Positions 7,667 through 10,600 of a DNA stretch of 64,000 bases are shown in pieces. The translations under genes and the position numbers were made by a program. This DNA comes from Agapetus fuscipes. Its lineage: Eukaryota > Arthropoda > Insecta > Trichoptera > Glossosomatidae. Every line of letters starts with the position of its first letter. The first letter of the stretch is position 1. Below the pieces are notes generated by a model, which was not told where the DNA came from, did no database searches, and saw only the letters and a list, made by a program, of their open reading frames with translations. The stretch lies in assembly GCA_951799405.1 (NCBI GenBank), contig OX637339.1, positions 5,332,001 to 5,396,000 on the forward strand, read 5' to 3'.

Positions 7667-10600
7667 CTGCCATCAAACTTATGCCATGTATATAAAACAA
7701 AGGATTTATTGGTGCAAGTCAAGCGGTGTGAAGAAAAAGTGGTTATTAAGAATAATTGGGAAAAATTGTCAGATGAAACAGGTTATAAGTCAAAGTCTTT
7801 TTCAAAATAAGACATCTACTAATGATGTCTGATTCAATATTGACAAAACTTTAACGGGGCTATTCTTAGACATTTTAGTCGTCGGTTGAGCCCACGCTTT
7901 GACAAACTAATGATGCATTTGTATGAAGATCTGTCAATCCAAGATAGCCGCAAGTGAACAGCTGTTTGTCTTATTTTGTAATATTAGTATGAACTAATAT
8001 TACAAAATTTGGTAGGTAAGAATGACCGTGCTGATGAAACTTCCAGCCCAGGCACCATTAGTTTGTCAAAGCGTGGGCTCAACCGACGACTAAAATGTCT
8101 AAGAATAGCCCCGAAAGAAACTAGTTATTTTCTTCATAAAAGCCATTTAATAATTCGATACAAAATACTATGTCACACTTATCAGTTAATTTGCTTTCTG
8201 AATAAAATTAACAGTGTTTTCTAATTAAAATTTATTTTTACTACAGGTAATATATATATCTATAACTGGTAATATGGCTAAGAAGATTGAAAAATATATC
8301 TCTTTGTTAGTTCATATTTATCTTATTTGAGAAATCTATTTTAACCAATGTTCAATCTTCTTGGAAAATGCAGTTAGTGTGGAATGTTCTGTTTCCCAAA
8401 ACATGAAAATCTAAAAAAAATCTATGTAAAAATATTTACAATTTAAAATATGCACAATATGAAATGTCACAGCATCTAATCTAATCTAATCTAATCTAAG
8501 CTGCAAAGATATATATCATTTAAGATTTATATTAAATGCATTCCCACAAGCAGACATGTATAATTTCGCGCTAACACATACCGCATGTGGACCTACAATA
8601 TAAAAATCCAATCTCAAATGAACATAAGCTCTGCAACTCTTGCCGTCCTTCCCTGAAACAGGGGTGACATTGGCAAAGTGAACCATTTTTTACAGTATGG
8701 GTGGTCAGCCGCATACCAACCTCACAGCATCATCACTGTTAATGATAAAATATCCATACTTATACACAAACCGGGTTATTCACAACTCGTTTGATCCGTA
8801 ACTGATCTATGGATCATATTTTTTTTTGTATTGAAAATTTATATCAAGTGGCGGTTGAGCTATGGATTTGCTGTGTGTGAATAACACTGAAAGAGCTCAA
8901 TTGTTTCAAGTGTTAATACTATCCTCTGCAATGAACAAAACAAATTGATAGAAAAATAATTAAAAATATAATTTCCTAAAAGTTATTTCAGAATCTGGCA
9001 CTGTAGAGCTATTTGTACAACGGTCAAATAGAGGTATTGCAAGTTGACTTGCTTGGACACTTTATTGTGGACGATTGACACACCAAGACATTCTGATGTC
9101 TGCCCATAGATAAGTAAGTACTGAGGGTGTGTACCTGATTTGTCCAGCCAGCAGGGGGTTGATGGCGTACAGCCAGTCATGCACCTCCTTGTCCCCGAGG
9201 GTCTGCAGCAGGTAGCCTCGGTGCTTGCTCACCACACTACAAGATATTAGTAAGTACTGAGGGTGTGTACCTGATTTGTCCAGCCAGCAGGGGGTTGATG
9301 GCGTACAGCCAGTCATGCACCTCCTTGTCCCCGAGGGTCTGCAGCAGGTAGCCTCGGTGCTTGCTCACCACACTACAAGATATTAGTAAGTACTGAGGGT
9401 GTGTACCTGATTTGTCCAGCCAGCAGGAGGTTGATGGCGTACAGCCAGTCATGCACCTCCTTGTCCCCAAGGGTCTGCAGCAGGTAGCCTCGGTGCTTGC
9501 TCACCACACTACAAGATATTAGTAAGTACTGAGGGTGTGTACCTGATTTGTCCAGCCAGCAGGGGGTTGATGGCGTACAGCCAGTCATGCACCTCCTTGT
9601 CCCCGAGGGTCTGCAGCAGGTAGCCTCGGTGCTTGCTCACCACACTACAAGATATTAGTAAGTACTGAGGGTGTGTACCTGATTTGTCCAGCCAGCAGGG
9701 GGTTGATGGCGTACAGCCAGTCATGCACCTCCTTGTCCCCGAGGGTCTGCAGCAGGTAGCCTCGGTGCTTGCTCACCACACTACAAAAATATATTTTTTT
9801 ATATAAATTTGTGCAAAGGAATGCAATTCACCAATCGATTTTTATCGCACCAGAAACAGGTATTAACGTGATCAATTAAAAATACTATTTTTTAATTGAT
9901 TAGTCAATGACTACCCATATACCCTTATAACTCACATTTTAAAGAGGAAAGCCAAGCTAATAGGGCCCCTTTAGCCGCCTTACCCTGAAACCAGGGTGGC
10001 ATTGGTACAAGTGACCGGTCCGTAGCTCAGTGGTAACACTGCGGACTCTGAATGGGAAGGTCGTGGGTTCGAATCCCGGCGGAGCACAAAAAATATACCA
10101 TTTATATTTTCAAATTTGCTCTTCGCTGGGTTGAAAAATTCGTAAACCTTTACCAATGACCGGTCACCAAAGGTCCATCCAGCCTTACAGCAACTGGGTC
10201 TTGATTGAGCATTGGCGCTTTGTAGCGACGACCAAGCTCGTACACCTCTGCGGCACGACAACAAGTGTCATAGACCCCTAGAGTCTCTAGAATCTAGGGA
10301 GTCTCCCGCACAGGATTTCTTAAAAAAAAAAAAAAAAAGTGAACCAACTTTTACAGCACGGGGGGTCAGCCTCATACCAACCTATCAGTCAAGGAGAACA
10401 AAAAAATACTCATCCAATTGACAACTCTATTATTTGACCAGCAAGTACCTGAATGTGTTGGGCATCTTGACCATCTGTGCCTGGTCCTCTGAGTACTCCA
10501 CATGAGCTGCAGCCAGGTTGATTACAGCTCGCTCCACGGAGTCCTTCTCTGAGCGGAAGATGAACACGTATGGGCGACGTACAACCTAGAGAAAATTATT

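What the first reader, a model, noticed from the sequence alone, without database searches (positions are those of the whole stretch)
9135..9780. Five tandem copies of the last PH-domain exon of unc-104 with spacers too short to splice
Seen: five 102-base exons, each with acceptor and donor, phase 2 at both ends, repeating every 136 bases. The 34-base spacers keep GT, TACTAAT and AG but are below the usual minimum for animal introns. Inference: copies cannot be joined to one another, so one at most is used per mRNA, an enforced mutually exclusive choice by size. Because 102 is a multiple of three, zero or one copy keeps frame. Retaining a spacer adds [10 protein letters not shown] and stops, losing the polyQ tail.
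Basis: partly seen in the sequence, partly recalled or inferred. Interest (0 to 1): 0.9.

Follow-up and report, generated by a model that had tools for sequence, protein, structure and literature searches.

The report
Five-copy tandem exon in insect unc-104
One exon of an insect motor-protein gene has been copied into five almost identical tandem copies, packed so tightly that neighbouring copies probably cannot be spliced together, although copies further apart still could be.

Summary
Five 102-nt copies of the last PH-domain exon of unc-104 (minus strand, 9780..9135) repeat every 136 nt. The four 34-nt spacers are identical, and so are copies 1, 2, 4 and 5. Copy 3 has two C>T changes; one turns the proline of NPLLAG, kept in 218 of 218 fetched sequences with the motif, into leucine. 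The gene is collinear with caddisfly unc-104.

The spacers lie below the functional minimum quoted for flies, so joining neighbours is unlikely. Size forbids only neighbours; 13 in-frame outcomes remain (skip, five singles, six pairs, 1-3-5).

Four copies encode identical residues, so this is redundancy rather than choice. Most likely it is a young exon-containing tandem repeat, tolerated because one-copy mRNAs give the normal protein. No RNA or raw reads could be examined; copy number and splicing are untested. It is a new variant of a known kind (tandem exon duplication with steric exclusion).

The parts
9679..9780 (-). exon copy 1 (first transcribed), 102 nt
9645..9678 (-). 34-nt spacer 1
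9543..9644 (-). exon copy 2, identical to copy 1
9509..9542 (-). 34-nt spacer 2
9407..9508 (-). exon copy 3, two C>T changes (9469 silent, 9428 Pro to Leu)
9373..9406 (-). 34-nt spacer 3
9271..9372 (-). exon copy 4, identical to copy 1
9237..9270 (-). 34-nt spacer 4
9135..9236 (-). exon copy 5, identical to copy 1
10449..10585 (-). preceding exon (middle of PH domain); donor at 10448
9781..10448 (-). upstream intron, 668 nt (predicted)
7667..9134 (-). downstream intron, 1468 nt (predicted)
7567..7666 (-). last coding exon (polyQ tail), stop codon included
7567..47188 (-). unc-104 coding region: 33 exons mapped up to and including array copy 1, plus the last coding exon

Best explanation
This is a young, minisatellite-like amplification whose repeat unit is a complete internal exon plus its two splice sites, inside an otherwise collinear unc-104 gene of a caddisfly-like insect. 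Splicing usually takes one copy, giving the normal PH domain. The 34-nt spacers prevent neighbouring copies from being joined (a rule between neighbours only). Non-neighbouring copies remain joinable by introns of 170-442 nt and would give in-frame proteins with two or three repeats of the last part of the PH domain. If neighbouring copies are instead read as one long exon, the retained spacer ends translation at the TAG of the next acceptor, with the PH domain complete but the polyQ tail lost. Shown: sequence, frames, spacer identity, single-copy relatives. Inferred: which splice products form, neutrality, and young age.
For: Array anatomy and copy identity. The gene is collinear with A. grandis unc-104 residues 1-1669. 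The relatives listed by the first search carry the motif exactly once, 120 of 120, many being isoforms of one species. Spacer 34 nt against quoted fly minima, and against earlier adenovirus E1A work, cited in the introduction of PMC6692369, in which a 35-nt distance from 5' splice site to branch site abolished assembly (passage). The 32 introns predicted up to the array are 107-6123 nt, second shortest 285. 13 size-allowed sets at minimum introns of 35, 60 and 107 nt. Near-zero divergence between copies suggests recent amplification, and a change at a proline kept in 218 of 218 sequences suggests relaxed constraint on single copies.
Against: No RNA was available, and the own-genome search did not complete. 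Near-identity is also what a mis-assembly would show. Against the neighbour rule: the fly study set its shortest intron to 25 nt, as observed in FlyBase annotations (PMC5762160 passage), and 655 canonical human introns under 50 nt were proposed (PMC5435141 passage), so very short introns are at least annotated. Acceptor scores of all copies are low against this gene's other sites: 1.92 (copy 1) and 2.42 (copies 2-5) against a minimum of 3.3 among 30 others, so inner copies may hardly be used. The score matrix rests on 30 predicted sites.
Confidence: 0.57

Rival explanations
1. Assembly artefact: the real locus has one copy (or a different number) and the assembler multiplied it.
For: Copies 1, 2, 4 and 5 and all four spacers are identical. 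A draft moth gene model (P0241, Operophtera brumata) shows doubled pieces of two unc-104 exons, which may be of that kind.
Against: Copy 3 carries two private changes in the middle of the array. The spacer's 3' part differs from both flanks, and that difference is shared by all four spacers, as expected if a real unit was amplified. None of the other 32 exons compared is doubled in the window, and there are no N.
Confidence: 0.2
2. Strict mutually exclusive exon cluster: exactly one copy per mRNA, enforced by spacer size.
For: Neighbouring copies are too close by the quoted fly minima. Steric interference is an accepted mechanism: 57 of 629 human clusters have under 50 bp between donor and predicted branch point (PMC5740500 passages).
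Against: 170-, 306- and 442-nt introns between non-neighbours are available. No frame penalty removes multi-copy products, because 102 is divisible by 3. The copies are not diversified. No docking/selector complementarity above shuffles: longest perfect match 7 nt upstream (191 of 200 shuffles reach it) and 8 nt downstream (158 of 200).
Confidence: 0.1
3. Copy number raises inclusion of a weak exon: five chances to catch the exon reduce skipping, which would be in frame but would remove the end of the PH domain.
For: All five acceptors score below the 30 other acceptors of the gene. Skipping keeps frame. In the model of relative P0122 the exon corresponds to residues 130-164 (alignment): most of strand 128-132, strand 137-141, helix 145-155 and half of helix 157-170.
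Against: Listed relatives carry this segment in single copy, so one copy suffices there. A stronger-scoring cryptic donor GTGGTGAGC in each following copy (8.18 against 5.08 for the true donor) could divert copies 1-4 into 140-nt exons that carry a stop; U1 pairing energies differ less, -8.1 against -7.1.
Confidence: 0.1

Closest known systems
Tandem exon duplication giving mutually exclusive exons by steric interference (surveyed in PMC5740500, passages; alpha-tropomyosin recalled)
   Same: Duplicated exon with its splice sites, frame-preserving, donor and branch point too close for neighbours to be joined.
   Different: Five copies (recalled: usually two or a few); copies are identical rather than diverged; size does not exclude non-neighbours.
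Dscam-type exon clusters with docking and selector sequences (PMC6071210, passages)
   Same: Array of more than two tandem exon copies.
   Different: No perfect complementary docking/selector match above shuffles; copies carry almost no protein diversity.
Minisatellite/VNTR, including coding tandem repeats (general class, recalled)
   Same: 136-nt unit in a head-to-tail array with near-identical units, likely unstable in copy number (inference).
   Different: The unit contains a whole exon with both splice sites, so copy number need not alter the protein.

Membership tests
Mutually exclusive exon cluster (steric type) | Tandem homologous exons of equal length and phase | tested here: met
Mutually exclusive exon cluster (steric type) | Donor to branch point too short between neighbours | tested here: met
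   34-nt spacer, branch candidates at nt 20 and 24 (motif matches, not mapped branch points) against a quoted fly minimum of about 35 nt
Mutually exclusive exon cluster (steric type) | All multi-copy joins impossible or out of frame | tested here: not met
   seven in-frame multi-copy sets allowed by size
Mutually exclusive exon cluster (steric type) | Exactly one exon in each mature mRNA | not testable with these tools
   no RNA data
Dscam-type docking/selector cluster | Complementary docking and selector sequences | tested here: not met
   perfect Watson-Crick matches of 7 and 8 nt to the two flanking introns, no better than mononucleotide shuffles; G-U or gapped pairing not tested
Minisatellite / VNTR | Head-to-tail near-identical units | tested here: met
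   period 136, 5.0 copies, 99% matches
Minisatellite / VNTR | Copy number varies between individuals | not testable with these tools
   one assembly only
unc-104 / kinesin-3 | Gene collinear with a full-length unc-104 protein | tested here: met
   tblastn of Arctopsyche grandis unc-104; exons and introns predicted from it

The most novel reading that the evidence does not exclude
A whole exon has become the unit of a near-identical tandem array that follows a 'no two neighbours' splicing rule, so that single mRNAs carry one, two or three copies (for example 1-3-5), generating a family of motor proteins with 1-3 repeats of the end of the cargo-binding PH domain from copies that are themselves almost identical.
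Probability: 0.15. Interest if true: 0.7.

Novelty: new variant of a known kind. Interest (0 to 1): 0.45.

Why it matters
Nearly identical exons differing only in position would be a natural test of how the spliceosome chooses among equal sites: first come, nearest, or last. The array also predicts which pairs can be joined (non-neighbours only), so one RNA experiment can measure the spacing rule in vivo. It shows a route by which a gene could tolerate a repeat expansion inside its coding region.

Tried and rejected
Docking/selector RNA pairing: not supported, matches no better than shuffles (perfect Watson-Crick matches only, mononucleotide shuffles). Chance repeat: rejected. Pseudogene: not supported, the gene is collinear with A. 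grandis. Multi-copy proteins elsewhere: a search with three joined copies (1717 hits among 7970 candidates scored, best 120 listed) gave only P0241 (Operophtera brumata) covering 96% of the query stretch; the other 119 listed rows cover at most 54%. P0241 is a draft gene model with a partial first copy and extra sequence in frame, not evidence of copies joined exactly. Of all 282 proteins fetched, 260 had exactly one DWLYA[IFLV] motif and none had more than one DWLYA[IF]; the other 22 were not gone through one by one. Relatives were sought as proteins only; no eukaryotic relative's DNA was available, so the exon structure of relatives was not seen. No listed hit was recognised as the window's own transcript (120 listed each). 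P0149 (102 aa; 98% identity over 55% of the query) ends before the array exon.

How the first duplication arose stays unclear: the spacer's 3' 12 nt align to the upstream flank with score 1.0, reached by 18 of 1000 shuffles, a modest sign that they derive from it. Eleven paper searches were sent, ten answered and one rejected for its wording. Their listings showed no title or abstract start that reports this array, or identical exon arrays with spacers below intron size. The searches were narrow, so this is no proof of absence.

Full report
WHAT IS THERE. The window holds an insect unc-104 (kinesin-3) gene on the minus strand, coding start 47188, last coding exon from 7666. The best relative found is Arctopsyche grandis (a caddisfly; its order is recalled), 76% identical over the 291-aa query stretch, and its residues 1-1669 align exon by exon through the gene. 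I therefore call the source caddisfly-like; the species is not established. Exon borders were predicted by script from that alignment and GT/GC-AG sites, not from RNA. Thirty-two introns up to the array have lengths of 107 to 6123 nt, the two shortest 107 and 285; the last intron is 1468 nt.

THE ARRAY. At 9780..9135 the exon that encodes the end of the PH domain occurs five times, 102 nt each, every 136 nt. Four copies are identical. Copy 3 has a silent change at 9469 and a Pro-to-Leu change at 9428. That proline is present in 218 of 218 sequences that match the motif used, out of 240 fetched at that point, many of them isoforms or close relatives. The four spacers are identical. The sequence after copy 5 leaves the spacer after 22 nt, and the sequence before copy 1 runs with the spacer end over TTGTAG and then departs. 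The shared spacer thus differs from both flanks, which fits amplification of a unit that already existed. The branch-site-like TACTAAT spans the junction (TACT|AAT), so it was probably created by the duplication; this is inference. None of the other 32 exons compared is repeated in the window (the last coding exon was not compared).

CAN NEIGHBOURS BE JOINED? Unlikely. The spacer is 34 nt and its possible branch adenosines are at nt 20 (CTTAC) and nt 24 (CTAAT), the only yUnAy matches in the 136 nt before copy 2, the inner copy tested. A Drosophila study quotes minima of about 35 nt from 5' splice site to branch and about 15 nt from branch to 3' splice site (PMC5762160, passages). The introduction of a human study cites earlier work in which 35 nt between 5' splice site and branch site abolished assembly (PMC6692369, passage). 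Human introns of 43 nt are spliced (PMC4463651, passage). Against this, the fly study set its shortest intron to 25 nt as observed in FlyBase annotations, and 655 canonical human introns under 50 nt were proposed elsewhere (PMC5435141, passage), so the limit is not absolute. The same Drosophila text places branch sites of 45-nt introns at -15 to -10, so inner acceptors could still be reached from distant donors.

DOES SIZE ENFORCE ONE COPY? No. A donor can skip its neighbour and use the next acceptor: 170 nt for i to i+2, 306 for i+3, 442 for i+4. With the minimum intron set at 35, 60 or 107 nt, 13 sets of copies are allowed: none, five singles, six pairs and the triple 1-3-5. At 171 or 286 nt nine sets remain, three of them pairs. 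At 30 nt all 32 sets are allowed. The sets are in frame because 102 is divisible by three; the translation of 1-3-5 is open to the normal stop.

OTHER PRODUCTS. Skipping is in frame and removes the segment. In a predicted model of relative P0122 (mean pLDDT 73.7; 10-residue blocks 69-92 over residues 61-170) the exon corresponds to residues 130-164: most of strand 128-132, strand 137-141, helix 145-155 and half of helix 157-170, with the proline in question at 157. A skipped protein therefore probably lacks a folded PH domain (inference). A retained spacer adds [10 protein letters not shown] and stops at the TAG of the next acceptor; the PH domain is complete and only the tail is lost. A stronger-scoring donor (GTGGTGAGC, 8.18 against 5.08 for the true donor; 4 of 30 other donors score below 5.08) lies 4 nt into each copy. 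In an array it becomes usable as a downstream donor of the preceding copy, giving a 140-nt exon with the same stop for copies 1-4. The U1 pairing energies differ less (-8.1 against -7.1), and the matrix rests on 30 predicted sites.

FUNCTION. Four of five copies encode the same residues, so choosing among them changes nothing in the protein. The simplest account is a young, mostly neutral amplification tolerated because a one-copy mRNA is normal. Inclusion insurance for a weak exon is possible: acceptor scores of 1.92 and 2.42 lie below all 30 others scored for the gene. It is untested. The same weakness could mean that the inner copies are hardly used.

RELATIVES. The motif occurs once in each of the 120 proteins listed by the first search (7994 hits in all, 120 listed, many isoforms). 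One moth gene model, P0241, shows a partial doubling of the same exon and a doubling of another; it may be an artefact.

LIMITS. No reads, no RNA, no second individual; the own-genome search did not complete (eight attempts). A mis-assembly is the main rival.

Noticed in passing
P0241 (Operophtera brumata protein): The annotated protein has a partial second copy of the same PH exon with intron-like sequence in frame, and a doubled exon [15 protein letters not shown]...; either independent duplications or draft-assembly artefacts.
   Followed up: partly
60931-61993 and 62214-62435: Two minisatellite arrays with 28-nt units (38.0 and 7.9 copies).
   Followed up: no
20217: Predicted GC-AG intron in unc-104 (donor AAG|GCAAGT).
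   Followed up: no
9066: AATAAA about 70 nt downstream of copy 5 in the last intron; an alternative 3' end right after the array is conceivable.
   Followed up: no
50198-50284: ARAGORN calls a tRNA-Ile (anticodon aat) on the plus strand.
   Followed up: no
8675-8727 and 10336-10388: Interspersed repeat copies (53 nt, 85% identical) in the two introns flanking the array.
   Followed up: no
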